A DNA stretch of 64,000 nucleotides from Stigmatella aurantiaca DW4/3-1 (GTDB taxonomy: Bacteria > Myxococcota > Myxococcia > Myxococcales > Myxococcaceae): positions 8,574,893-8,638,892 of the forward strand of contig NC_014623.1 in assembly GCF_000165485.1 (NCBI RefSeq). Direction: 5' to 3'. This document shows, in pieces, positions 5,682-49,717 of the stretch; positions within the stretch are counted from its first letter, which is position 1; every line of letters begins with the position of its first letter. The position numbers and the translations under genes were made by a program. Below the pieces are notes generated by a model that was not told the DNA's origin, ran no database searches, and was given only the letters and a program-made list of their open reading frames with translations.

Positions 5682-7187
5682 ATGTCCCGCCCCCTGCCCC
5701 TGCTCGTCACGCTCTGCCTTGCGGCCTGCGGAGGGCCCGAGGGTCTCCCGGACACGGCCTTCCCGGACACGGTGGGCGTGAGCCCCGCGGAAGCGGTGGC
5801 GGTGGGGGGAGGGCTCAAGACGCTGGCCGCCACCCATGGCATCACCTTTGGAGGGGTGGCCAAGCGCTCGGCGATCGACAACGACGCCGCCTTCCGGACC
5901 ACGTTGACGCGCGAGTTCAACCTGGTCACCCCCGAGAACGAGCTGAAGATGAAGTTCATCCAGCCCAACCGGAAGGACGAGTTCCTCTGGGGGGACGCCG
6001 ATGCGCTGGTGAACTACGCCAGGAGCAACGGCCTGGCCCTGCATGGCCACACCCTCGTCTGGTACAAGGTTCCCACCTGGGTCGAGAGCACCGCGCTCAG
6101 CGAGCGCGAGGCGGTGATGAAGAACTTCATCACCACGGTGGCCACCCGCTACAAGGGCAAGGTCTGGGCGTGGGATGTGGTCAACGAGGTCTTCAACGAC
6201 GATGGCTCGTACCGCAACTCCGTCTGGTACCAGGCCATGGGCACGGGCTTCATCGACAAGGCGTTCTGGACGGCGCGCACCGCGGACCCGGCCGCCAAGC
6301 TCGTCTACAACGACTATGGCATCGAGACCATCAACGCCAAGTCGAACGCCGTCTACGCGATGATCCAGGGCTTGATCGCCAAGGGCGTGCCCTTCGATGG
6401 GCTCGCCTTCCAGATGCACATCAAGCAGAAGGGCATCGACTACCAGAGCTTCGCGGACAACATGCGGCGCTTCGCGGCGCTGGGCATCCAGCTCTACGTC
6501 AGCGAGATGGACGTCGCGACCAACAGCCACCCGGCCACCCCGGCGGACCTGACGGCCCAGGCGGACGTCTACTGGAACATCCTCGACCGGGTGCTCCAGC
6601 AGCCCGCCGTCAAGGCGTTCCAGCTCTGGGGGGTGACCGACAAGTACACCTGGCTGCCGGAGAACGACCCCCTCATCTTCGACGCGGCCTACAACGCGAA
6701 GCCCGCCTACGCGGCGCTGGAGCACCGGCTCCAGACCGGAGGCTTCTCGGGCCGCTACACGCTGGTGAACAAGCGGACCGGCAAGGCCCTGCACGTGGCC
6801 GGCAGCGCGCAGACCAACGCGGCCGCGGTGGTGCAGTACGAGCTTCACGAGGACTGGGCCGCCCAGCAGTGGAGCTTCAACTACGTGGGAGGCCGCTCCT
6901 ACCAGGTCCTCAACCACCACAGCGCGCTGGCGCTGAAGGTCAAGGATGGCTCCACCTTGGAAGGGGCGCTGCTCGAGCAGTACACCCCCGATGTGTCGAT
7001 GGACAGCGAGCAGTGGGAGCTCATCTCCGCGGGCAACGGCTACCATGCCCTGCGCAACAAGCGCAGCCAGCGCCTGCTGGTGGCCTTCCCCGGGGACAAC
7101 AACACCCCGGTCCACCAGTACAGCCCCTACGTGCCCACGGCGGAGTTCACCGACAGCCAGCTCTGGACCCTGCGCCGCGTGCCGTGA
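5682..7187 (+). CDS. Endo-1,4-beta-xylanase, GH10, with C-terminal ricin-type lectin domain (lipoprotein)
   Basis: Secreted plant-polymer-degrading enzyme of 501 residues. The N-terminus (MSRPLPLLVTLCLAAC) is a lipoprotein signal with Cys16 as the likely lipidation site. Residues ~45-350 are a GH10 barrel: GHTLVW, then WAWDVVNEVFND with acid/base Glu169, and LYVSEMDV with nucleophile Glu275. Residues ~360-501 hold a beta-trefoil ricin-like lectin with QQWSF, SEQWEL and SQLWTL repeats, likely a carbohydrate-binding module. The enzyme hydrolyses internal beta-1,4-xylose linkages of xylan. The ATG follows GGAGG at five bases. A 9-bp dyad upstream may regulate it. Surface anchoring would keep the released sugars near the cell. 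Confidence 0.93.
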   Translation: MSRPLPLLVTLCLAACGGPEGLPDTAFPDTVGVSPAEAVAVGGGLKTLAATHGITFGGVAKRSAIDNDAAFRTTLTREFNLVTPENELKMKFIQPNRKDEFLWGDADALVNYARSNGLALHGHTLVWYKVPTWVESTALSEREAVMKNFITTVATRYKGKVWAWDVVNEVFNDDGSYRNSVWYQAMGTGFIDKAFWTARTADPAAKLVYNDYGIETINAKSNAVYAMIQGLIAKGVPFDGLAFQMHIKQKGIDYQSFADNMRRFAALGIQLYVSEMDVATNSHPATPADLTAQADVYWNILDRVLQQPAVKAFQLWGVTDKYTWLPENDPLIFDAAYNAKPAYAALEHRLQTGGFSGRYTLVNKRTGKALHVAGSAQTNAAAVVQYELHEDWAAQQWSFNYVGGRSYQVLNHHSALALKVKDGSTLEGALLEQYTPDVSMDSEQWELISAGNGYHALRNKRSQRLLVAFPGDNNTPVHQYSPYVPTAEFTDSQLWTLRRVP

Positions 7188-7220
7188 ACCGGCGGGCCCG
7201 ACAGGGCGCGGGGCAGCCCT

Positions 7221-10200
7221 TCACCGGGAGGCCTCCACCTGCTCCAGCGCCCGCTGAAGCTGGGACAGCGCATAGGGCTTGGCCAGCACCACCACACCCG
7301 CGATGCGCGCGCCCCCATCCTCGAGCACCGCGCTCCCATGCCCCGAGGCGATGATGATGCGCAGCCCCGCCCGCCGCCGCACCGCCTCGCGCGCCAGCTC
7401 CACCCCGGACATCCCCGGCAGCGTCACATCCGTGAACAGCACATCGAAGGCGTCCGCCACCAGCGCCCCCCGCGCCTCCTCGGCGCTCTCCACCGCCAGC
7501 ACGTCGTGGCCCAGGAAGCTCAGCAGCTCGCTCGCCGAGGCGCGGATGTCCTCATCGTCCTCCACCAGCAGCACGCGCAGCCGCCGCGGCTTGTCCAGGC
7601 CATGGGCCCGCTCGGGCCGGAAAGGCTCCCGCTCCACCCGCGGGGACTGGGCCGCCAGCCGCTGCCGGACGTTGAGCAGACCGCGCACCTTGCGCGCCAG
7701 GTCCTCGCGCCGGTAGGGCTTGCTCAGCAGGTGGACGCCCGGGTCGAGCCGCCCCCCGTGCACAATCGCGTTCTCCGAGTAGCCCGAGGTGAAGAGCACC
7801 TCGAGGTCCGGCAGCAGGGCCTTGGCCTCCCGTGCCATGTCGGGGCTGCGCAGCGGGCCGGGCATCACCACGTCGGTGAGCAGCAAGTCCACGTGTACAC
7901 CGCTCTGGACGATGGCCAGCGCGCTCTGCGCATCGACGGCCTTGAGGATGCGGTAGCCCAGCTCGCTCAGCATCTCCACCACGGTGGCCCGCACCGCGGC
8001 GTCATCCTCCACCACCAGGATGGTCTCGGAGCCCCCCTCGATGGGCCCTTCCACGGTTTCGGGGCGGTGCGTCTCGGACAGGAACGCACGGGGCAGGTAG
8101 ACCTTCACGCACGTGCCATGTCCCAGCTCGCTGTAGATCTTCACGTGGCCGCCGCTCTGCTTGACGAAGCCGTACACCATGCTCAGGCCCAGGCCCGTGC
8201 CGCGACCCTCGGACTTGGTGGTGAAGAAGGGCTCGAAGGCCCGCGCCACCACCTCGGGCGGCATGCCGCTGCCCGTGTCGGAGACCGCCAGCATCACGTA
8301 CTCACCGGGGACCGCCTCGGGGTGGAGCTGGGCATAGCGCTCATCGAGCATGGCGTTGCTGGCCTCGATCGTCAGCCGCCCATGGCCCGTCATGGCGTCC
8401 CGGGCGTTGATGGCCAGGTTGAGGATGACGTTCTCGAGCTGGTTGGGGTCCGCGAACGTGTTCCACAGGCCCCCCGTCACGACGGTCTCCACCTCGATGT
8501 CCTCCCCCAGCGAGCGGCGCAGCAGATCATCCATGCCGCGCACCAGCCGCCCCAGGTGCAGGGCCACTGGCTGCAACGGCTGCCGGCGTGAGAACGCGAG
8601 CAGTTGGGAGGCAAGCTTGGCCCCGCGCTCGACGGCCCCCAGGGCGGTCTGCACCCGGCGCAGGGCCCGCTCGTGGGTGGCCACGTCACGCTCCAGCAGT
8701 TGGAGGTTGCCGCCAATGATTTGCAGCAGGTTGTTGAAGTCGTGCGCCACGCCGCCCGTGAGGTTGCCCACGGCCTCCATCTTCTGGGCCTGCCGCAGCT
8801 GCTCTTCGATCTGACGCTGCTCGGTGATGTCGCGCGCGACGGCGTAGAGCAGCCCGTCCTCGGGCACGGGCACCGCCATCCAGGACAGCAAGCGGTAGGA
8901 GCCGTTCTTGTGGCGCATGGAGTTCTCGAAGGCCACCGTCCGGTGGCCCTCGGCCAGGCGCGCCACCTCGGCCCGCGTCCTCGCATGGTCCGCCGGGTGC
9001 TCGATCCACGTGGTGGTCTTCCCCAGCAGCTCTTCTTGCGTCCACCCGAGGATCGCCGTCCACGCCGGGTTCGCACTGATGAACCGGCCTTCCATGTCCG
9101 ACACCATCTGCAAGTCCTGGGAGACGTTCCAGATGCGGTCCCGCTCGCGCGTCCGCTGCGCCACGCGCTGTTCGAGCGTCTCGTTGGCCCGCCGCAGATC
9201 CGCCATCACCCTCACGCGCTCGCTGGCCACCCAGATGCGGTCCGCGACCGTGTTCATGAAGTGGATCTCGTCCTGCGACCAGGGGCGAACCTCCCGGTGG
9301 TGCAGGAACAGGAGGGCCACGAGGCGCCCCTGCTCGCACAGCGGCACGTCGAGCAGCGCCCGGACGCCGTAGGTCCGCAGGTGCGCCACCTGCCCAGCGG
9401 TCCTCGGATCGGCCTCCACGTCCGGGATGACGACGGGCTCGCCCCGCTTGAGGTTCTCGAAGTAGGTGCCATGGTCCGCGAACCGGTGGGTGCCCACCAC
9501 ACGGATGACGTCCGGCCCGGACACCCAGTCCCGCTCGACCTCGACGAGCCCCTGCGACACGTCGACCCGGCCATACCCCGCGCGCAGGACGCCGAAGTGG
9601 CGCCCGACCCGCTCCATGGCCTCCCCGGCGATGTCCGCCGTGCTGTCGAGCGACCTCAGCCGCTCGCCGATCTCGGCCAGGACCGCCTGGCGAAGCTCTG
9701 CCCGCTTCCGCTCATCGATGTTGAGCAGCACCCCCGGGAAGCGGAGCGGCTTGCCCTCCGTGTCGCGCTCGCAGTGGCCGTTCGCCTCCAACCAGAGGTA
9801 GGAGCCATCGAACTGCCGGGCGCGCAGCTCGGCGCGCAACGGCTTGCCCTGCTCCAGCGTCTGGAGGACGAGCGCCTCGACGCGAGGGTAATCCTCGGGG
9901 TGAATGGAGGCCGCAAGCACCTCGGGCGTCACCTCCTGGGAGACCGACTCGGACGCGAGCCCGAAGGACCTCGAGAAGCGCTCATCGACGGTGATCCGGA
10001 CGGCGGGGATGTCCCAAACCCAGGTGCCGAGCACGGCCCCCGCGTTCAGCGCGAGCTGGATGCGCTCATTGGCCGCGCGGAGCGCGTCCTCGGCGTGCCG
10101 GCGCTCGGTCACGTCCTGCACGACGCCAATGAGCCGGACGGCCCGGCCCTGCGCATCCCGGACGAACTCCGCGCGCCGGGAGATCCACCGCAGCTCGCCC

Positions 10201-41499: not shown

Positions 41500-42921
41500 A
41501 TGAGCACTGCCAAGCCTTCTCAATTCGGTGTTGCTGGCCTGGGCGTGATGGGGGTGAACCTCGCGCTCAACATCGCGGACCATGGGTTCTCGGTGGCAGG
41601 GTGGGAGTTCAGCCCCAAGCGGCTCGCGGCCGTCCAGGCGGAGAAGCCGTACGAGCGGCTGAAGACCACGGGCTCGCTGGAGGAGTTCGTGGGCATGCTC
41701 GAGCGCCCGCGCCGCATCCTGCTGATGGTGACCGCCGGAGACCCGGTGGACCAGATGATGGACCGGCTGGCGCCGCTGCTGTCACCGGGGGACGTGCTCA
41801 TCGACGGCGGCAACTCCTGGTTCCAGGACACGCAGCGCCGGGAGAAGGCCTACCGGGAGAAGGGGCTGCGCTTCATCGGCATGGGCGTCTCCGGCGGAGA
41901 AGAGGGCGCACGCCACGGCCCCTCGCTGATGCCAGGCGGCCCCGCCGAGGCATACGAGCACATCCGCCCCGTGGTGGAGGCCATCGCCGCGAAGACCGAC
42001 CAGGGGGCGTGCGTCACCCACGTGGGCCCCGGCGGCGCGGGGCACTTCGTGAAGATGGTGCACAACGGCATCGAGTACGCGGACATGCAGCTCCTGGCGG
42101 AGACGTATGACGTGCTCCGCCGGGGGCTGGGCCTGTCCCCGGATGCGCTCGTGAACACCCTGGCGGAGTGGAACGAGGGCATCTCCGGCTCCTTCCTGCT
42201 GGAGACCACCCTCCAGGTGCTGCGCAAGAAGGATCCCGAGACGGGCAAGCCCCTGGTGGACCTGGTGCTGGACAAGGCCGGCCAGAAGGGCACCGGCAAG
42301 TGGACGGTGCAGGTGTCGCTGGATCTGGGCGTCCCCGTGCCCTCCATCGCCTCGGCGCTCGATGCGCGCAACCTCTCGGCCATGAAGGACGAGCGCGTGG
42401 CGGCGAGCGCGAAGCTCCCGGCCCCGCAGGCGGCGCTCACGGACGAGGAGAAACAGCACCTGGCCGCCTGGACCCATGACGCCCTCTACGCGGCGCGGGT
42501 GGTCACCTATGCCCAGGGCATGCGGCTCATCCAGGCGGCGTCCAAGGAGTACCAGTGGAACGTCTCCCTGGCGGAGCTGGCGCGCATCTGGCGGGGCGGC
42601 TGCATCATCCGCGCGAAGCTGCTCACCCCGCTGCGCGAGGCCTTCACGCAGCAGCCGGACCTGCCCAACCTCGTCGTCTCGGAGGCCTTCGCCCCGGTGC
42701 TGACGCGGATGGCCCCCGCCTGGCGGCGCGTGGTGGGCACGGCCACCCGGCTGGGCATCCCCGTGCCGGTGTTCTCCTCGAGCCTGGCCTACCTGGACAG
42801 CTACCGGAGCGCCGAGCTGCCCCAGAACCTCACCCAGGCCCAGCGCGATGCCTTCGGCGCCCACACCTACCAGCGCCGCGACCGGCCAGAAGCAGGCTTC
42901 GTCCACTCCGACTGGAGCTGA
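41500..42921 (+). CDS. gnd: 6-phosphogluconate dehydrogenase (decarboxylating)
   Basis: Third enzyme of the oxidative pentose phosphate route, giving ribulose-5-phosphate, CO2 and NADPH. A 473-residue protein, the usual length. The N-terminus has GVAGLGVMGVNLALNIADHG with the GxGxMG cofactor loop, then DGGNSWFQDT, GVSGGEEGARHGPSLMPGG, VGPGGAGHFVKMVHNGIEY with the catalytic Lys, and KGTGKWTVQVSLDLGVPVP in the helical domain. It closes the zwf-pgl-gnd cluster, 40 bp after pgl. A 30-bp palindrome lies shortly after its stop. Confidence 0.96.
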   Translation: MSTAKPSQFGVAGLGVMGVNLALNIADHGFSVAGWEFSPKRLAAVQAEKPYERLKTTGSLEEFVGMLERPRRILLMVTAGDPVDQMMDRLAPLLSPGDVLIDGGNSWFQDTQRREKAYREKGLRFIGMGVSGGEEGARHGPSLMPGGPAEAYEHIRPVVEAIAAKTDQGACVTHVGPGGAGHFVKMVHNGIEYADMQLLAETYDVLRRGLGLSPDALVNTLAEWNEGISGSFLLETTLQVLRKKDPETGKPLVDLVLDKAGQKGTGKWTVQVSLDLGVPVPSIASALDARNLSAMKDERVAASAKLPAPQAALTDEEKQHLAAWTHDALYAARVVTYAQGMRLIQAASKEYQWNVSLAELARIWRGGCIIRAKLLTPLREAFTQQPDLPNLVVSEAFAPVLTRMAPAWRRVVGTATRLGIPVPVFSSSLAYLDSYRSAELPQNLTQAQRDAFGAHTYQRRDRPEAGFVHSDWS

Positions 42922-42941
42922 CCCCCGGAGCAGGGCAGGCA

Positions 42942-42971
42942 GGCGGATGTCGAAATATTTCGACATCCGCC
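42942..42971. promoter_or_regulatory. Perfect 30-bp palindrome ahead of the response regulator
   Basis: GGCGGATGTCGAAAT (42942-42956) is followed immediately by its reverse complement ATTTCGACATCCGCC (42957-42971), with no spacer. It lies 20 bp after gnd and about 65 bp before the response regulator start. It may be an operator for the downstream two-component system or a terminator of gnd. The lack of a loop and of a T-run favours a protein-binding site. Confidence 0.65.
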
Positions 42972-43036
42972 CGAAGTCTTCCGGACATGCACGATTGGGA
43001 CGGTTCGCCGTCATGATGCAACCGGGAGTCCCGAGC

Positions 43037-43771
43037 ATGGAGCCAATGGAGCGCCCCACGGGCGACGACACCACCGCCACCATTCAAGTCCTGCTGGTCG
43101 AGGATGACGAGCGCCTGGCCCGGCTCACCAGCCGCTATCTCCAGGAACATGGCCTCATCGTCACCATCGCCCGGACAGGCCCCGAGGGGCTCGCCGAGGC
43201 GGGCCGCCACGCCTACGACGTCCTCCTGCTCGACCTGATGCTGCCCGGCCGGGACGGGCTGGAGGTGTGCCGCGAGCTGCGCACGCGCAGCGATGTGCCC
43301 ATCATCATGGTCACCGCCCGGGGCGAGGAGATCGACCGGGTGCTCGGGCTGGAGACGGGCGCTGACGACTACCTCCCCAAACCGTACTCCTCGCGGGAGC
43401 TGCTCGCGCGCATCCGGGCGCAGGTGCGGCGGGCCCGGGGCAACGCCGGGCCCTCGCTCCAGCCGCTCAACGTGGGCCGGCTCCAGATGGACCCGCGCAG
43501 CCTCACCGCGGTGCTCAATGGCAAGACCCTGTCGCTCACCAGCTACGAGTTCAACCTCCTGCGCGTCCTGGCCGAGCGGGCCGGGCGCGTGCTCAGCCGC
43601 GAGCAGCTCCTGGACCTCATCAAGGGCAGCGCGGACGAGGTGTTCGACCGCTCCATCGACGTCCACATCTTCCGCTTGAGACAGAAGCTGGAGGAGGATC
43701 CGCGCAACCCGCGGATGCTCAAGACGGTGCGGGGGGCGGGCTACCTGCTCGCCCGGGGAGATGAACCGTGA
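43037..43771 (+). CDS. OmpR/PhoB-type response regulator
   Basis: A 244-residue DNA-binding regulator. The receiver domain holds LLVEDDERLARL, phospho-acceptor Asp66 in LLLDLMLPGRDG, VTARGEE and Lys in LPKPYSSREL. The winged-helix domain follows with LTSYEFNLLRVLAERAGRVL, the DNA-contact helix SREQLLDLI, DRSIDVHIFRLRQKL and the terminal VRGAGYLL. It acts with the kinase whose GTG start overlaps its stop. I chose the ATG at 43037 with GGGAG upstream; earlier ATGs at 43013 and 43016 are in frame. A perfect palindrome lies between this gene and gnd. Confidence 0.92.
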   Translation: MEPMERPTGDDTTATIQVLLVEDDERLARLTSRYLQEHGLIVTIARTGPEGLAEAGRHAYDVLLLDLMLPGRDGLEVCRELRTRSDVPIIMVTARGEEIDRVLGLETGADDYLPKPYSSRELLARIRAQVRRARGNAGPSLQPLNVGRLQMDPRSLTAVLNGKTLSLTSYEFNLLRVLAERAGRVLSREQLLDLIKGSADEVFDRSIDVHIFRLRQKLEEDPRNPRMLKTVRGAGYLLARGDEP

Positions 43772-45204
43772 GCGAGGGTGGCCACCGGCGCCGCTGGCTC
43801 CCGGGGCCCCTGCTGCTGCGCATCTACCTGGTGGGACTGGCGCAGTTGCTGCTCATCGCCTTGAGCCTCATGGGGATCCGGCGGCTGGAGGACAATGACT
43901 TCAACAAGCGCTTCGCGGGCCGACACCCGGCCTACTTCTCCGCGGAGTGGTCCCGCCTGCTGACACAACCCGGAGAGCTCCAGGACGCGATGGACCGGTC
44001 CCGGCGCATCCTCTCCCGGGCCACGGTGCGGTCCCTGGACGGTGGGCTCCTGGCCTCCAGCGCCTCGCCTCCCCTCGAAGCGCTCTCGCCGGAGCAGTTG
44101 CGCCGGCTCATGCAGGAGCGCATCGTCACCTTCGATGAGCCGCACCTCACGGCCGTCGCCATGCCCGAGAGCGGACCGGTGGAAGCCTACGCCGTGTTCA
44201 TGCAGCGCCCACCGCCCCCGGGGCCTCCCGGCAATCCCGCGCTGCCCATCGTGCTCATGCTCGTGTGCACGGGCATCACCTCCCTGCTCCTCACGCGCAC
44301 CCTGGCCCCCCCGCTCCAGCGGCTGGCCAAGGTGGCGAGGGCCTTCGGCTCCGGCAAGCTGGACATCCGCACGGGGCTGCGCCGGAGGGACGAGTTGGGC
44401 CAGGTGGCCGAGGCCTTCGACGAGATGGCCGACCGGATTGCCCACCTCTTGAGTTCGCAGAAGCAGCTCCTGGCCAACGTGTCCCACGAGCTGCGCACGC
44501 CGCTGGCCCGGATCCGCGTGGCGTTGGATCTCGTCGAGGAGGGCGATGCGCAACTGGCGCGCGAGTCGATCTCGGACATCACCACGGACCTGGCCGAGCT
44601 GGATCGGCTGATCGACGATGTGCTCACCGCGGCGCGGCTGGACATCACCCCCGAGCAGGTGCCTGGAGCCACCCCGCCGCTGCGCAGGGAGCTCCTGGAT
44701 GCGCGGACGCTGGTGGACAAGGCCGCGGCGCGCTTCAGCACCACCTGGCCGAAGCACAAGCTGGAAGTGACCCTGGAGGGCACCCTGCCCACACTGGACG
44801 CGGATCCGGTGCTCCTGCGCCGCGCGCTCGACAACCTGCTGGACAACGCGGGCAAGTACTCCGAGCCGGGCACGACGGTGCGGCTGCGCGCCCAGGCCCT
44901 GCCCACGGGCCTCCAACTCGAGGTCATCGACGAGGGCATCGGCATCGATGCGAGCGACCTGCCGCACCTGTTCACCCCGTTCTTCCGCAGCGACCGGAGC
45001 CGGGCGCGGACCACGGGGGGCGTGGGCCTGGGGCTCGCGCTCGCACGCCGCATCATCGTCGTGCACGGGGGAAACCTCACCCTGGAGAGCCAACCGGGCC
45101 AGGGCACTTCGGTCCGGGTGTTTCTGCCCGCCACGCCCCTGGATCCATCCACCTTCGCGAACGAAGCCACGGCCCCCCCGCCCCGGAGAACCCAAGCACC
45201 GTAA
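43768..45204 (+). CDS. Membrane-bound sensor histidine kinase (HAMP-HisKA-HATPase)
   Basis: A 478-residue kinase from a GTG that overlaps the regulator stop (GTGA), so the pair is co-translated. The first membrane helix is near residues 10-35 (LLLRIYLVGLAQLLLIALSL), then ~110 periplasmic residues, a second helix near 160-185, a HAMP linker (LARTLAPPLQRLAKVARAFG style), the phospho-acceptor His240 in NVSHELRTPLARIRV, and the ATPase domain with DNLLDNAGKYS, DEGIGI and GGVGLGLALARRI. It resembles CpxA/RstB-type envelope-stress kinases. The signal sensed is unknown. The last ~20 residues are Pro/Ala-rich. Confidence 0.92.
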   Translation: MSEGGHRRRWLPGPLLLRIYLVGLAQLLLIALSLMGIRRLEDNDFNKRFAGRHPAYFSAEWSRLLTQPGELQDAMDRSRRILSRATVRSLDGGLLASSASPPLEALSPEQLRRLMQERIVTFDEPHLTAVAMPESGPVEAYAVFMQRPPPPGPPGNPALPIVLMLVCTGITSLLLTRTLAPPLQRLAKVARAFGSGKLDIRTGLRRRDELGQVAEAFDEMADRIAHLLSSQKQLLANVSHELRTPLARIRVALDLVEEGDAQLARESISDITTDLAELDRLIDDVLTAARLDITPEQVPGATPPLRRELLDARTLVDKAAARFSTTWPKHKLEVTLEGTLPTLDADPVLLRRALDNLLDNAGKYSEPGTTVRLRAQALPTGLQLEVIDEGIGIDASDLPHLFTPFFRSDRSRARTTGGVGLGLALARRIIVVHGGNLTLESQPGQGTSVRVFLPATPLDPSTFANEATAPPPRRTQAP

Positions 45205-45255: not shown

Positions 45256-45990
45256 TTAGTAGCAGGTGCCGACGCCGCTGCAGCTGCAGTTGTTGCTCGC
45301 GAAGGAGTAGTCGTCGGAGGCCGCCGCGAAGCTCCCGAGGCCGTAGTCGTGCTTGGCGCAGTCCTGGGTGTACGCCGTGGTGCCCACGCACTTGGGCGTG
45401 CTGGTGATGCCACAGCCCTGGCCGCAACGGCCCTTGCACCCGTTGTCACCGCCATTGCAGCTGCAGCCCCGGCCCGCCTGACGCGTGTAGCCACCGATGT
45501 TCTGGTTGCCGCAAGTGCAGGAGAGGTGAACCCAGCCGCGCTCCGCGACGTACTGGTACGGCGTGAGGGTCTCGCCCACCGGGACAATCTGCATGAAGCT
45601 CGTCTGGCGCATCGCCGTGTCCTCGATGCGCGTGCGCTCCGTTTCCGGAACGGCCTTCTCGAGCCCTTCCGCCAAACCGTTGATCAACCGGCTCTGGGCC
45701 GCATCCAGCGGGTTGCCGCTCGGCATGAAGCGGCCAACCCCTTGGTTGTAGTCGATGCGGAAGCCGACGATCGACTCCCCGAAGTCATAGGTCACCTCAA
45801 TGACGTTGGGCGAACTCTCCGTGACCAACGCGCGCACGGACGTGCCGCCCGAGCGGTAGGTGGCCTCGAGCGCGGTCGCGTCGTGGCGGAGCAGGGTGAA
45901 GCCCTCCGTCTCGTCTACCCGGTCCGCGGACTCGTTCGAACAGCCCAGCACCATCGTCATCGCGATACAGCACAGGAACAGCTTTTTCAT
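45256..45990 (-). CDS. Cys-rich lipoprotein with phospholipase A2-like CxxHD motif
   Basis: A 244-residue exported protein starting MKKLFLCCIAMTMVLGC, a clean lipobox with Cys17. Residues ~25-150 have no recognised family. The C-terminal ~95 residues hold about 14 cysteines: SCTCGNQN, GRGCSCNGGDNG, CKGRCGQGCG, then YTQDCAKHDYGLGSF and NNCSCSG. The DCAKHD element with a preceding glycine- and cysteine-rich loop is the pattern of prokaryotic phospholipase A2-like domains, where the HD dyad is catalytic and binds calcium. It may cleave phospholipids or be an adhesive relative. Convergent with the histidine kinase gene, 51 bp apart. Confidence 0.82.
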   Translation of the reverse strand: MKKLFLCCIAMTMVLGCSNESADRVDETEGFTLLRHDATALEATYRSGGTSVRALVTESSPNVIEVTYDFGESIVGFRIDYNQGVGRFMPSGNPLDAAQSRLINGLAEGLEKAVPETERTRIEDTAMRQTSFMQIVPVGETLTPYQYVAERGWVHLSCTCGNQNIGGYTRQAGRGCSCNGGDNGCKGRCGQGCGITSTPKCVGTTAYTQDCAKHDYGLGSFAAASDDYSFASNNCSCSGVGTCY

Positions 45991-46276
45991 GGGGGTCTCG
46001 GCTTTGCTTGTTTCAGGGTGGATACAGCGAATGAGACGCTAGAGAACACATTCGCCGCATGTCCAGATCCATCGGAATAAGCAGCATTGCCTCCACACCC
46101 AGCAAAGCGAGTCTTTTCTCACCCCAGCCTTGGACCCGGGTTGCCACTGCCCTCCCAACGGGTGAGTCCTGACTCCGCCGCTCTCAAGCGTGCGCTTCCT
46201 CCCGGGCGACCCGCTTTACAGGAGCAGGGCGCGGCACCCAGGTTGATGGGATGGCCCGTCTTGATGAGGTGGTGTC

Positions 46277-46927
46277 ATGTCCAATCCCCCGCTGCCCTCT
46301 CCCAGCACCATCGCGGACGCGCTCCTCGCCGGCGACAGCGCGACCGTCCTCGATGCCGTGAGCCGCTACATGAGCTTCGGAGGCGCCCCGTTCCTCGTGG
46401 ATGCGCTTGCCCATCCCGTCATGGAGCAGGTGGGTGAGCGCTGGCATGCTGGCACTGCATCCGTGGCGGATGAACACGCTGCCTCGGAGCTATTGCGTGA
46501 GATCTTCTCGACCCTTTTGCCAAGCCTGGCATGGCACCAGGGCGGCCCCAAGGCCGTCGTCACCTGCGCTCCCGGCGAGCAGCACCTTCTCGGAGCCAGG
46601 CTCATTTCCCAGGTCCTGGCGCTCGACGGCTGGCGCGTGCGATTTCTCGGCGCGGCCCCCCCTGCCAAGGACCTCGCCCTGTTCGTCGCCCGCGAGCAGC
46701 CGGTCTTCGTGGGGCTCTCGGTCACCATGGCCGACCACATTCCCGCCGCGCGCACCGCGCTCGAGTGGATCCACCGCACGGCGCCCCAGGTCCGTCTCGT
46801 GGCAGGCGGGAGCGCATCAGAGGCGCTGATGCCTGCCGAGAAGGAGACGTGGGCCGTGCTCTCATCCACCCAGGATCTCTTGTGGATGACGCGCGGCGGC
46901 ACCGACGGACTCATCGTCTCCCGCTAA
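46277..46927 (+). CDS. Free-standing B12-binding protein with CarH-type W-x9-EH signature
   Basis: A 216-residue cytoplasmic protein after GAGGTGG. Residues ~10-85 form a helical bundle containing Trp56 and Glu66-His67 (WHAGTASVADEH), the W-x9-EH signature that caps adenosylcobalamin in the CarH/LitR photoreceptors. Residues ~90-205 are a B12-binding Rossmann domain with the base-off ligand motif GEQHLLG (His103), then VFVGLSVTM and LVAGGSAS. The MerR-type DNA-binding domain of CarH is missing. So it may be a B12- or light-responsive signalling module acting through partners. Its 3' end overlaps the convergent histidine kinase by 17 bp. Confidence 0.85.
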   Translation: MSNPPLPSPSTIADALLAGDSATVLDAVSRYMSFGGAPFLVDALAHPVMEQVGERWHAGTASVADEHAASELLREIFSTLLPSLAWHQGGPKAVVTCAPGEQHLLGARLISQVLALDGWRVRFLGAAPPAKDLALFVAREQPVFVGLSVTMADHIPAARTALEWIHRTAPQVRLVAGGSASEALMPAEKETWAVLSSTQDLLWMTRGGTDGLIVSR

Positions 46928-48152
46928 CCTTCGGCAGGACCACGATGAAGGTCGCCCCCCTCCCGGGCTGGCTGCGTACGGCGATGGTCCCCCCGTGGGC
47001 CTCGATGATTTGCCGCGCCACATACAACCCGAGCCCCATTCCCCCGTAGTGCTTGGGGGAGACCGCCCGCTCGAAGCGCTCGAAGATGCGGCTCGCGTCC
47101 TCGGGCGCAAGGCCGATTCCCTGGTCCTGGACGCACAGGCGCACCACCTCCTCCTTCCCTTCCACGGACACGTCGATGGGATGCCCCGCCCCATACTTGA
47201 TCGCATTCGAGATGAGACTCGAGAGCACCTGCTCCAGCCGCAGCTGGTCCCACACACCTCTCACCCGGCCAGGGGTGTGGACTTCCAACGGGCACCCCGC
47301 CCCCTCCGCCTCTTCCTGGAAACGGTCCGTCACCTCGATGGTCAGTGCGGACAAATCCATGTCCTCGAGCAAGAGGCCCAGCCGCCCAGTCGCGATGCGC
47401 GACACATCCAGCAGGCGATCCACGAGTTGAAGCAGGCGCTGCACCTGGACCGAGGACCGTTCGAGGTGCCGCATCACCCAGGGGTCGTCGATCCCCGCGG
47501 CCACCACGCTGCGACGGAGCGTCTCCAGTTGCAGCTTCAGGGGGGTCAGGGGCGTGCGCAGTTCGTGGGCGGCAATGGAGAGAAACTCGTCCCGTGATTT
47601 GACCCCCTCGCGCTCCTTCTGGAGCAGCTGCTCGAATTCGCGTGTCGCCCGGAATTCCACCTCGGTCATCACGCAAGCCGCGAGATCCTTGAGAATCTTC
47701 GCCTCGCGGTCCGTCCAACGGCGCGGGACTGTGTCCAGGACGCAGAGTGTCCCCAGGGCCTGGCCGCCGGGGTTGATGAGCGGAACGCCTGCATAGGCAA
47801 CCGCTCCCAATGTCTCCATGTCCAGGCACTTTCGGAGCAGGGGGTGTTTGCGGGTGTCCTCCACGAAGAGGGGCGCCCCCGCGGCCACCGTGTGCTGACA
47901 CACCGAATGCGACAGCGGCATCGCGCGTTGGCGAAGCCATGGCTCCGGGAAGCCGTGACAGCTCTTACAGAACAGGCGCTCTTCATCCAGGAAGTTCACC
48001 ATCCCCATGGGGGTGAGGAGACAGTGGCATGCCAGCCGGGAGAGGCGATCGAACGCCTCCTCCGCCGGGCTGTCCATGAGCCGCGTCAGGCGCAGGGCAT
48101 CCAGGCGCTCCTGCGAGCGCAAGAGGCTCTGCATGTTGACGCTCTCCCCCAT
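46911..48152 (-). CDS. GAF-domain sensor histidine kinase
   Basis: A 413-residue soluble kinase with no membrane helix. The N-terminal GAF domain (about 20-165) follows the GAF style of light- and redox-linked kinases: LTPMGMVNFLDEERLF, PLSHSVCQHTV, LGTLCVLD. Then comes a dimerisation helix with phospho-acceptor His196 in IAAHELRTPLTPLKLQLETL, and an ATPase domain with SLISNAIKYG, DQGIGLAPED and GGMGLGLYVARQI. No receiver domain is attached. Its tail overlaps the B12-binding gene on the other strand. The partner regulator is not adjacent. The ATG at 48152 has AGGGG upstream. Confidence 0.9.
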   Translation of the reverse strand: MGESVNMQSLLRSQERLDALRLTRLMDSPAEEAFDRLSRLACHCLLTPMGMVNFLDEERLFCKSCHGFPEPWLRQRAMPLSHSVCQHTVAAGAPLFVEDTRKHPLLRKCLDMETLGAVAYAGVPLINPGGQALGTLCVLDTVPRRWTDREAKILKDLAACVMTEVEFRATREFEQLLQKEREGVKSRDEFLSIAAHELRTPLTPLKLQLETLRRSVVAAGIDDPWVMRHLERSSVQVQRLLQLVDRLLDVSRIATGRLGLLLEDMDLSALTIEVTDRFQEEAEGAGCPLEVHTPGRVRGVWDQLRLEQVLSSLISNAIKYGAGHPIDVSVEGKEEVVRLCVQDQGIGLAPEDASRIFERFERAVSPKHYGGMGLGLYVARQIIEAHGGTIAVRSQPGRGATFIVVLPKVSGRR

Positions 48153-48247
48153 GGCCAGGCCCCTGGCTGCACGCCCTCACCCCGCGCTTGACCGGATGGG
48201 GTGCGCCACCCTTGACGTAGACATGGGCAGACCCTGGCGCACCGGCG

Positions 48248-49717
48248 ATGAGCAGGCAGCCACGGGTTCCGCTGCCTCGCAGGGTGTCCACCGCCGAGGG
48301 AGTCCACGCCCCATCATCACCCCATTCAGCCCCCCCCCGCTTGGCGCTACGCTCCCAGCGCGTGAGCCCTGCCCCTGTCCTTCCCGATGCAGAAGTGGGT
48401 CCCTGGCGTGTGCGGAGTCTGCGCGGCCAAGGGTCCTATGGGGTCGTCTACCAGGTCGAGTCCGTGGAGAACGGCAAGGCGGGTCCCTTCGCCCTGAAAC
48501 TGGCGCTCTATGCAGGGGATCCGCGCTTCGAGCGGGAGGGGGAGTTGCTCTCGCGCCTGCGCCACCCGAATGTTCCCAGGCTGCGCGCCCGAGGCGGATG
48601 GGAACCGAGAGGGGGCGGTCTGTTCCCGTACCTCGTCATGGATTGGGTAGAAGGCATACCCCTCTATGAGTGGGCCACGCCATACGCCCTCACCTCCCGG
48701 CAGGTGCTGTGGATCCTGGCCCAAGTGGCCAGGGCGCTGGAGGCCACCCATGCCGTGGGCGGAGTGCACCGGGACGTCAAGGGCGACAACATCCTGATCC
48801 AACCCCATGGCCGGGCCGTGCTGATGGACTTCGGCTCGGGGAATTACCAGGGCGCACCGGTGCTCACGCGGCACCTCCCACCGCCGGGCACGCCTGAGTA
48901 CTACAGCCCCGAGTCGCTGCGCTTTCAGTGGGAACACCGGCACCACCCCCTGGCGCGCTACGAAGCCCAACCCTCGGATGACGTGTACGCGCTGGGGGTG
49001 ACGGCCTACCGCCTCGTGACCGGGAAATATCCCGAGGCCCTCGACATGGAGCTGACCGCGGAAGGCTTCCGGCCCATTCCACCCAAGTGGGTGCCGCCTC
49101 AATCGGACGAGGTGAACCTGTGCCCGGAGTTGGCGGAGCTCATTCAACGGATGCTCTCCCAGGATCCCTCGTCACGGGGGAGCGCGCGGGAAATGGCACG
49201 AGCGCTCGAACGGGCAGCGAAGACGGCGCGAGCCTCTGCGGATCAGCCCATTCACCCCCGCTCGGCCGCGTCACCCTTCGTGGGCGCGCCGCCGTTCACG
49301 CCCGCCCATCGAATCCTTTCGACAAGGCCTGCGTTGGCAGTGGCCCTGGGCGTGTGTTTGGGCATTGGGGTTTGGTGGGCAGGGCGTCCATCCAGAGAGG
49401 GCACTCCAGACCCCGAGTTCCAAGAAGCACAGGATGGTGGCGTGGTGGGCCTCGCGGACGCTGGGCTTGAAACCTCTGAAGGGCAGTCGCTCCACGCTCC
49501 AATGCGCTGGGAGATCGGCCGCGACATGCCCAAGAAACCCCTCGCGGGACAGCGCCGACCACCTTGTGGAAAACGTGAACTCGAGATCAACGGAGGGTGC
49601 TGGATTCATGACGAGGGAAGGACTCCTCCCTGCGGTGACGAGCTGGCCGAGTGGAAGAATGGCTGTTACTGGCCCCTTTTGAAGTTCCCCCTCCCCGCCA
49701 CCTCGGACACCCCGTAG
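48248..49717 (+). CDS. Ser/Thr protein kinase with membrane anchor and Cys-rich exported tail (paralogue)
   Basis: A 489-residue kinase closely similar in layout to the one at 19587. GQGSYGVVY, Lys in FALKLALY, FEREGELL, HRDVKGDN (His174) and DFGSG are all present, so it should be active. One membrane helix follows the kinase (ALAVALGVCLGIGVWW). The exported tail repeats the four-cysteine pattern: GQRRPPC, GGCW, PPCG, CYWP and TSD near the end. A GTG at 48362 is a possible later start, aligning better with the sister gene; no start has a strong ribosome site. It is divergent from the GAF kinase. Confidence 0.86.
   Translation: MSRQPRVPLPRRVSTAEGVHAPSSPHSAPPRLALRSQRVSPAPVLPDAEVGPWRVRSLRGQGSYGVVYQVESVENGKAGPFALKLALYAGDPRFEREGELLSRLRHPNVPRLRARGGWEPRGGGLFPYLVMDWVEGIPLYEWATPYALTSRQVLWILAQVARALEATHAVGGVHRDVKGDNILIQPHGRAVLMDFGSGNYQGAPVLTRHLPPPGTPEYYSPESLRFQWEHRHHPLARYEAQPSDDVYALGVTAYRLVTGKYPEALDMELTAEGFRPIPPKWVPPQSDEVNLCPELAELIQRMLSQDPSSRGSAREMARALERAAKTARASADQPIHPRSAASPFVGAPPFTPAHRILSTRPALAVALGVCLGIGVWWAGRPSREGTPDPEFQEAQDGGVVGLADAGLETSEGQSLHAPMRWEIGRDMPKKPLAGQRRPPCGKRELEINGGCWIHDEGRTPPCGDELAEWKNGCYWPLLKFPLPATSDTP

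What the first reader, a model, noticed from the sequence alone, without database searches (positions are those of the whole stretch)
46277..46927. CarH-type B12 photoreceptor module without a DNA-binding domain
W56-x9-E66-H67 and GEQH103LLG are the residues that bind and cap adenosylcobalamin in CarH/LitR. Here the MerR domain is absent, so light or B12 sensing would have to act through another protein. A GAF histidine kinase overlaps it on the opposite strand.
Basis: partly seen in the sequence, partly recalled or inferred. Interest (0 to 1): 0.68.

Follow-up and report, generated by a model that had tools for sequence, protein, structure and literature searches.

The report
Stand-alone B12 light sensor with kinase
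This myxobacterial gene encodes a small vitamin-B12 protein carrying the light-sensing signature of the CarH photoreceptor but no DNA-binding part, and it is always found tail to tail with the same histidine kinase gene, which suggests a light (or B12) sensor that signals through a kinase rather than by binding DNA.

Summary
Window 46277-46927 (+) encodes a 216-aa protein made only of a four-helix B12 cap and a Rossmann B12 domain. It carries every published element of light-responsive cobalamin domains: GxxW56, W-x9-E66H67, GEQH103 within ExHx2Gx41SxT..GG, and GxxxP129. No MerR domain is in frame: a stop lies three codons upstream, and orthologs lack one too. The AlphaFold model (pLDDT 92) matches CarH-type and photocobilin B12 domains best.

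The new evidence is about the partner. The convergent GAF-histidine kinase (46911-48152, -) overlaps by only 17 bp at the 3' ends, but the two genes are inseparable: orthologs of both occur in the same 11 of 96 family genomes, adjacent and tail to tail each time, in three otherwise unrelated neighbourhoods. More distant stand-alone relatives (other myxobacteria, Bacillaceae) also sit next to kinases.

Best reading: an AdoCbl light/B12 sensor acting by protein contact on its dedicated kinase. Cofactor binding, photolysis and kinase control are inferred, not shown. In a tree it lies outside the CarA/CarH clade, so it is not a CarH that recently lost its DNA-binding domain. Stand-alone B12 sensors (AerR, SasPcob) are known; a dedicated kinase partner was not found in the papers held. 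New variant of a known kind.

The parts
46277..46927 (+). Gene for the stand-alone CarH-type cobalamin-binding protein, 216 aa
   Evidence: ORF; Pfam B12-binding_2 + B12-binding; purifying selection dN/dS about 0.3-0.45 against congeners; AF2 pLDDT 91.6
46265..46267 (+). In-frame TGA stop three codons upstream of the ATG, excluding an N-terminal HTH
   Evidence: Read from the sequence; open frame 219 aa
46266..46269 (+). Probable ribosome-binding site (GAGG) 7 nt before the ATG
   Evidence: Read from the sequence; inference
46310..46516 (+). Four-helix cap subdomain (residues 12-80, B12-binding_2)
   Evidence: Pfam PF02607; helices 9-17, 21-57, 63-80 in the model
46442..46477 (+). W56-x9-E66-H67 motif that caps the adenosyl group; H57 aligns with CarH H132
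   Evidence: motif role from PMC8156234 and PMC11796333
46550..46819 (+). Rossmann B12-binding subdomain (residues 92-181)
   Evidence: Pfam PF02310
46577..46594 (+). E101-Q-H103-L-L-G106: lower axial His motif
   Evidence: E101, H103 and G106 invariant in A1
46649..46663 (+). GxxxP element (G125-P129) of the published light signature
   Evidence: PMC11796333
46911..48152 (-). Partner GAF-histidine kinase, 413 aa, convergent with the B12 gene
   Evidence: Pfam GAF, HisKA, HATPase_c; ortholog always adjacent
47670..48062 (-). GAF domain of the kinase (residues 31-161)
   Evidence: Pfam PF01590 E 1.1e-14
47388..47594 (-). HisKA dimerisation/phosphoacceptor domain (residues 187-255)
   Evidence: Pfam PF00512 E 2.3e-14
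46929..47249 (-). HATPase_c catalytic domain (residues 302-408)
   Evidence: Pfam PF02518 E 1.2e-29
46911..46927 (.). 17-bp 3'-3' overlap of the two genes
   Evidence: ORF coordinates; distance -45 to +14 bp in the 11 pairs

Best explanation
A soluble, stand-alone cobalamin-binding sensor of the light-responsive (CarH/photocobilin) type, working as a two-protein unit with the convergent GAF-histidine kinase. In the dark AdoCbl sits between cap and Rossmann subdomains, held by H103 below and capped by W56/E66/H67 above. Green light (or loss of AdoCbl) removes the adenosyl group, shifts the cap, and changes how the protein contacts the kinase, altering kinase activity and an unlinked response regulator. 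Shown here: the architecture, the complete motifs, the fold, and the conserved exclusive pairing with the kinase. Inferred: AdoCbl binding, photolysis, physical contact, the direction of control and the output.
For: All published elements of light-responsive cobalamin domains are present (GxxW, EH, GxxH, GxxxP: against PMC11796333; Wx9EH and ExHx2Gx41SxV/Tx22-27GG: against PMC8156234). The closest solved relatives by sequence and by fold are CarH, CtMerR and photocobilins. The kinase ortholog (at least 69% identity, or 71-77% over the kinase part in three genomes) occurs in exactly the 11 of 96 family genomes that hold the B12 ortholog (at least 61%), adjacent and convergent in all 11; the next-best kinase matches are paralogs over part of the protein, nearly all at 43-58%. 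Across three separate neighbourhoods these two genes are the only ones shared. Both genes evolve under similar constraint (dN/dS about 0.25-0.45). More distant stand-alone relatives in G053, G137 and Bacillaceae also neighbour kinases. The genome encodes a cobalamin adenosyltransferase. Published precedent: SasPcob, a stand-alone photocobilin, regulates a separate enzyme by protein contact (PMC10979010).
Against: No biochemistry. The pair is convergent, so the genes are not co-transcribed. W56 is Tyr in G079 and the CarH H132 position is Cys or Ala in most of the second genus's orthologs, though published CBDs vary at that position and still respond to light. G092 (49% identity) has lost H67 and has no adjacent kinase. 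dN/dS of 0.3-0.45 is moderate. The seven pairs in the second genus share one neighbourhood, so there are about three independent contexts, not eleven.
Confidence: 0.55

Rival explanations
1. Same pair, but the signal is cobalamin status or redox state rather than light: the protein reports AdoCbl availability to the kinase.
For: Apo-CarH and lit CarH are functionally alike, so sequence cannot separate the two; H57 (CarH H132) is not conserved in most orthologs of the second genus.
Against: The adenosyl-capping motif Wx9EH and the GxxxP element, tied to light response in the literature, are kept in nearly all orthologs.
Confidence: 0.22
2. An AerR/PpaA-like antirepressor: the protein acts on a DNA-binding regulator (for example CarH or CarA encoded about 32 kb away) and the kinase is a mere neighbour.
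For: AerR is a stand-alone cobalamin domain working on CrtJ (PMC9144470); the carA-carH-crt cluster lies about 32 kb downstream in this genome and about 39 kb in G077.
Against: The kinase, not the car cluster, is conserved beside the gene; in G078 and G079 the car locus is on another contig. AerR is a weak match (E 2.8e-4), and P0001 has no N-terminal His like AerR His10. Kinase pairing is exclusive in 11 of 11.
Confidence: 0.1
3. A corrinoid carrier for a methyltransferase (MtaC/MtbC type), not a sensor.
For: Weak NCBIfam matches to pyl_corrinoid, MtbC and MtgC.
Against: All lie far below their cut-offs (for example 25.7 against 215 bits); no methyltransferase nearby; the capping motif Wx9EH fits CarH, not MetH (PMC8156234); CarH-type structures rank first.
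Confidence: 0.03
4. Chance neighbours: a B12 sensor and a kinase kept together by hitch-hiking or one recent transfer, without functional link.
For: Myxobacterial genomes hold very many kinases (about 200 candidates per genome), and convergent genes need not be related in function.
Against: Three different neighbourhoods share only this pair, and no genome of 96 has one close ortholog without the other.
Confidence: 0.1

Closest known systems
CarH / LitR (MerR-type AdoCbl photoreceptor repressor)
   Same: Cap plus Rossmann cobalamin domain, Wx9EH, ExHx2G...GG, and H57 at the CarH H132 position; phmmer E 5e-19 to T. thermophilus CarH; fold TM about 0.7
   Different: No MerR DNA-binding domain; outside the CarA/CarH/TtCarH clade in the tree; linked to a kinase rather than to crt genes
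AerR / PpaA (stand-alone B12 co-regulator of CrtJ/PpsR)
   Same: B12-binding protein without a DNA-binding domain that works through another protein (PMC9144470)
   Different: Distant in sequence (E 2.8e-4); no N-terminal His10-like ligand; neighbour is a histidine kinase, not CrtJ/PpsR
Photocobilins (SasPcob, AbDPcob; B12 plus bilin globin-like domain)
   Same: Light-type cobalamin domain, among the best sequence and fold matches; the stand-alone form can regulate an enzyme in trans (PMC10979010)
CtMerR and other signature-positive CBD proteins (SignatureFinder set)
   Same: All four signature elements; best Foldseek match is CtMerR 8jbt/8jbs
   Different: Those named are fused to HTH, GGDEF, GAF, MEDS or bilin domains; no stand-alone CBD paired with a dedicated kinase was described in the sections read

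Membership tests
CarH/LitR family | AdoCbl-binding bidomain with Wx9EH | tested here: met
CarH/LitR family | Classic ExHx2Gx41SxV/Tx22-27GG B12 motif | tested here: met
   residues 101-178
CarH/LitR family | N-terminal MerR DNA-binding domain | tested here: not met
   Pfam; in-frame stop; MerR_1 search of the genome; long ortholog frames also lack HTH
CarH/LitR family | NCBIfam CarH equivalog NF052513 above cut-off | tested here: not met
   Best hit but 80.7 against 400 bits
CarH/LitR family | Groups with CarH in a tree of cobalamin domains | tested here: not met
   TtCarH, own CarH and own CarA fall in a branch at 100/98 that excludes P0001; P0001 orthologs form their own clade (100/96 with G092) (long branches noted)
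CarH/LitR family | Light-dependent change of oligomer and DNA binding | not testable with these tools
   Needs purified protein
Light-responsive cobalamin-binding domains (SignatureFinder) | GxxW, EH, GxxH, GxxxP | tested here: met
   GERW56, E66H67, GEQH103, GAAPP129 (PMC11796333)
Light-responsive cobalamin-binding domains (SignatureFinder) | AdoCbl binding and photolysis at 530 nm | not testable with these tools
   Needs purified protein
AerR/PpaA | Stand-alone cobalamin domain without DNA-binding domain | tested here: met
AerR/PpaA | N-terminal His ligand (His10) and CrtJ/PpsR partner | tested here: inconclusive
   First His of P0001 is H46, so no His10 equivalent; a CrtJ/PpsR partner was not searched for
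Photocobilin | Cobalamin domain plus globin-like bilin-binding domain | tested here: not met
   216 aa fully accounted for by cap and Rossmann domains
Corrinoid methyltransferase carrier proteins | Family model above cut-off and methyltransferase neighbour | tested here: not met
   scores far below cut-offs; neighbours
Sensor histidine kinase (partner gene) | HisKA and HATPase_c | tested here: met
   both above cut-off

The most novel reading that the evidence does not exclude
A two-protein B12 photoreceptor-kinase: a stand-alone AdoCbl domain that photoregulates a dedicated GAF-histidine kinase in trans, giving myxobacteria a green-light input to two-component signalling (perhaps to development) separate from phytochromes and from CarH-controlled carotenoid synthesis; a recurrent arrangement, also seen with unrelated kinases in other myxobacteria and in Bacillaceae.
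Probability: 0.45. Interest if true: 0.75.

Novelty: new variant of a known kind. Interest (0 to 1): 0.55.

Why it matters
Characterised AdoCbl photoreceptors act through a fused DNA-binding or enzyme domain, on a repressor, or (SasPcob, in vitro) on a diguanylate cyclase. A conserved stand-alone sensor with its own kinase would extend B12 light sensing to two-component signalling and give a directly testable pair, and a possible green-light kinase switch for optogenetics. If the organism is Stigmatella aurantiaca (suspected from genome size and gene content), it is also one whose fruiting is controlled by light.

Tried and rejected
An upstream or frame-shifted HTH: rejected by the in-frame stop, the genome MerR search and the orthologs. 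The kinase GAF as a bilin (phytochrome-type) receptor: its PDB match is a diguanylate-cyclase GAF (4zmu), while phytochromes match only through the kinase part. Linkage to the car/crt cluster about 32 kb away: no sign that it is kept, since in G078 and G079 it is on another contig. Linkage to the RR/HK pair at 42848-45204: absent from the other neighbourhoods. A fused CBD-kinase protein among the relatives: the Bacillaceae cases proved to be separate adjacent genes; none was found, but the search was not exhaustive. Rfam: no RNA element at 45700-48500. Promoter/terminator scan: nothing. The original photoglobin paper was not held.

Full report
CHECK. The ORF 46277-46927 (+) encodes 216 aa. Pfam finds only B12-binding_2 (12-80) and B12-binding (92-181). 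The ATG is preceded by GAGG, and by an in-frame TGA three codons upstream, so no DNA-binding domain is missed. MerR_1 matches elsewhere in the genome include the CarH and CarA genes about 32 kb away, none here.

WHAT IT IS. By sequence the nearest solved structures are T. thermophilus CarH (E 5e-19), then photocobilins and CtMerR; AerR is far (E 2.8e-4). With a profile of orthologs, photocobilins and CtMerR come first. An AlphaFold2 model built on 39 sequences has mean pLDDT 91.6; its best Foldseek matches are CtMerR, CarH and photocobilin B12 domains (TM 0.6-0.8). The paper that defined a signature for light-responsive cobalamin domains (PMC11796333) lists GxxW, EH, GxxH and GxxxP; all four are present (GERW56, E66H67, GEQH103, GAAPP129). 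CarA, the B12-independent paralog, lacks the Trp of Wx9EH (PMC9304148); the protein here keeps it. In a maximum-likelihood tree the protein and its orthologs form their own clade; own CarH, own CarA and T. thermophilus CarH fall together elsewhere (100/98), with a warning about long branches. So it works like the sensor half of CarH but is not a CarH that recently lost its HTH.

CONSERVED PARTNER. The overlap is 17 bp, between the two 3' ends. What matters is conservation. Orthologs of the B12 gene (61-87% identity) occur in 3 of the 6 other genomes of the genus and in 7 genomes of a second genus, named Myxococcus/Pyxidicoccus where titles are available. A separate search with the kinase over 96 family genomes finds orthologs (69-86%, or 71-77% over the kinase part in three genomes) in exactly those genomes and nowhere else; the next hits are partial matches at 43-58% with E-values 37 or more orders of magnitude weaker. 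In all 11 the two genes are adjacent and convergent with stop-to-stop distances of -45 to +14 bp. Three unrelated neighbourhoods are seen (window and G077; G078 and G079; the seven of the second genus), and between them only these two genes are shared within 9 kb. Both genes are under similar purifying selection (dN/dS 0.25-0.45). In G094, G104 and G109 the kinase has an extra divergent insert between its first GAF and the kinase core, yet keeps the B12 partner. A 49%-identical relative in G092 has lost H67 and has no kinase beside it, which fits decay of sensing when the partner is absent, but is one case.

RECURRENCE. Stand-alone relatives at 26-38% identity are also beside kinases: after a kinase in G137, before one in G053, and directly before a HisKA/HATPase gene in Bacillaceae. 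A photocobilin-like Desulfobacterales protein precedes a hybrid kinase. The actinobacterial relatives mostly show no kinase within 6 kb, so it is not a feature of every relative. A second, widespread myxobacterial stand-alone domain (own copy at G000:C1:373586) lies in a same-strand cluster with two hybrid kinases.

MECHANISM. Proposed: in the dark AdoCbl is held by H103 and capped by W56/E66/H67; green light removes the adenosyl group, the cap moves, and the protein changes its contact with the kinase. In T. thermophilus CarH a His beside the Trp becomes the new ligand; P0001 has it (H57) but most orthologs of the second genus have Cys or Ala, and published domains with Arg, Gln or Tyr there still respond to light. 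A stand-alone photocobilin regulates a separate diguanylate cyclase by protein contact (PMC10979010), so action in trans has precedent. The genome has the adenosyltransferase to make AdoCbl. Whether the signal is light or cobalamin status cannot be settled from sequence.

ORGANISM AND SETTING. The genome is one contig of 10,260,756 bases with CarA, CarH, crt genes and two phytochromes. Size and content are what I remember of Stigmatella aurantiaca DW4/3-1 (own recollection; one search did not confirm it). That species forms fruiting bodies under control of red and far-red light, with a role for bacteriophytochromes (PMC12048173). A link of this pair to development is speculation.

LITERATURE. 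In the held papers, stand-alone B12 sensors (AerR; SasPcob) and fusions to HTH, GGDEF, GAF, MEDS and bilin domains are described; searches combining CarH or cobalamin-binding domain with histidine kinase gave no description of a dedicated kinase partner in titles, abstracts or the passages read. Many subscription papers, including the original photoglobin survey, are not held, so novelty of the pairing is provisional.

VERDICT. Observation confirmed; interpretation partly supported and extended. New variant of a known kind.

Noticed in passing
L052:2181-7234 (G000:C1, near 373586): A second stand-alone CarH-type cobalamin domain (247 aa, Wx9EH), present across most of the family, in a same-strand cluster with a 246-259 aa protein without Pfam or PDB match and two hybrid histidine kinases (682 and 528 aa).
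   Followed up: partly
L078, L082, L084, L089 (around 5900-7750): In Bacillaceae (Robertmurraya and relatives) a stand-alone cobalamin domain is immediately followed by a separate HisKA/HATPase kinase gene.
   Followed up: partly
L065:9004-9672 (G092): 49% ortholog in which the EH of Wx9EH is changed (E-T) and no kinase is adjacent: perhaps a decayed or repurposed sensor.
   Followed up: partly
L060:6961-8928, L062:7099-8910, L063:9737-11704: In three genomes the partner kinase carries an extra divergent GAF-like segment between its first GAF and the kinase core.
   Followed up: partly
window 42848-45204: OmpR-type response regulator followed by a HAMP histidine kinase, a separate two-component pair conserved only in the nearest relative's copy of this neighbourhood.
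   Followed up: no
window 45256-45990 (-): 244-aa probable lipoprotein with a Cys-rich C-terminal region and no Pfam match, 93% identical in the nearest relative.
   Followed up: no
L098:5497-6627 and 6485-9145: Desulfobacterales photocobilin-like protein (N-terminal extension plus cobalamin domain) directly upstream of a PAS hybrid kinase with receiver and Hpt domains.
   Followed up: partly
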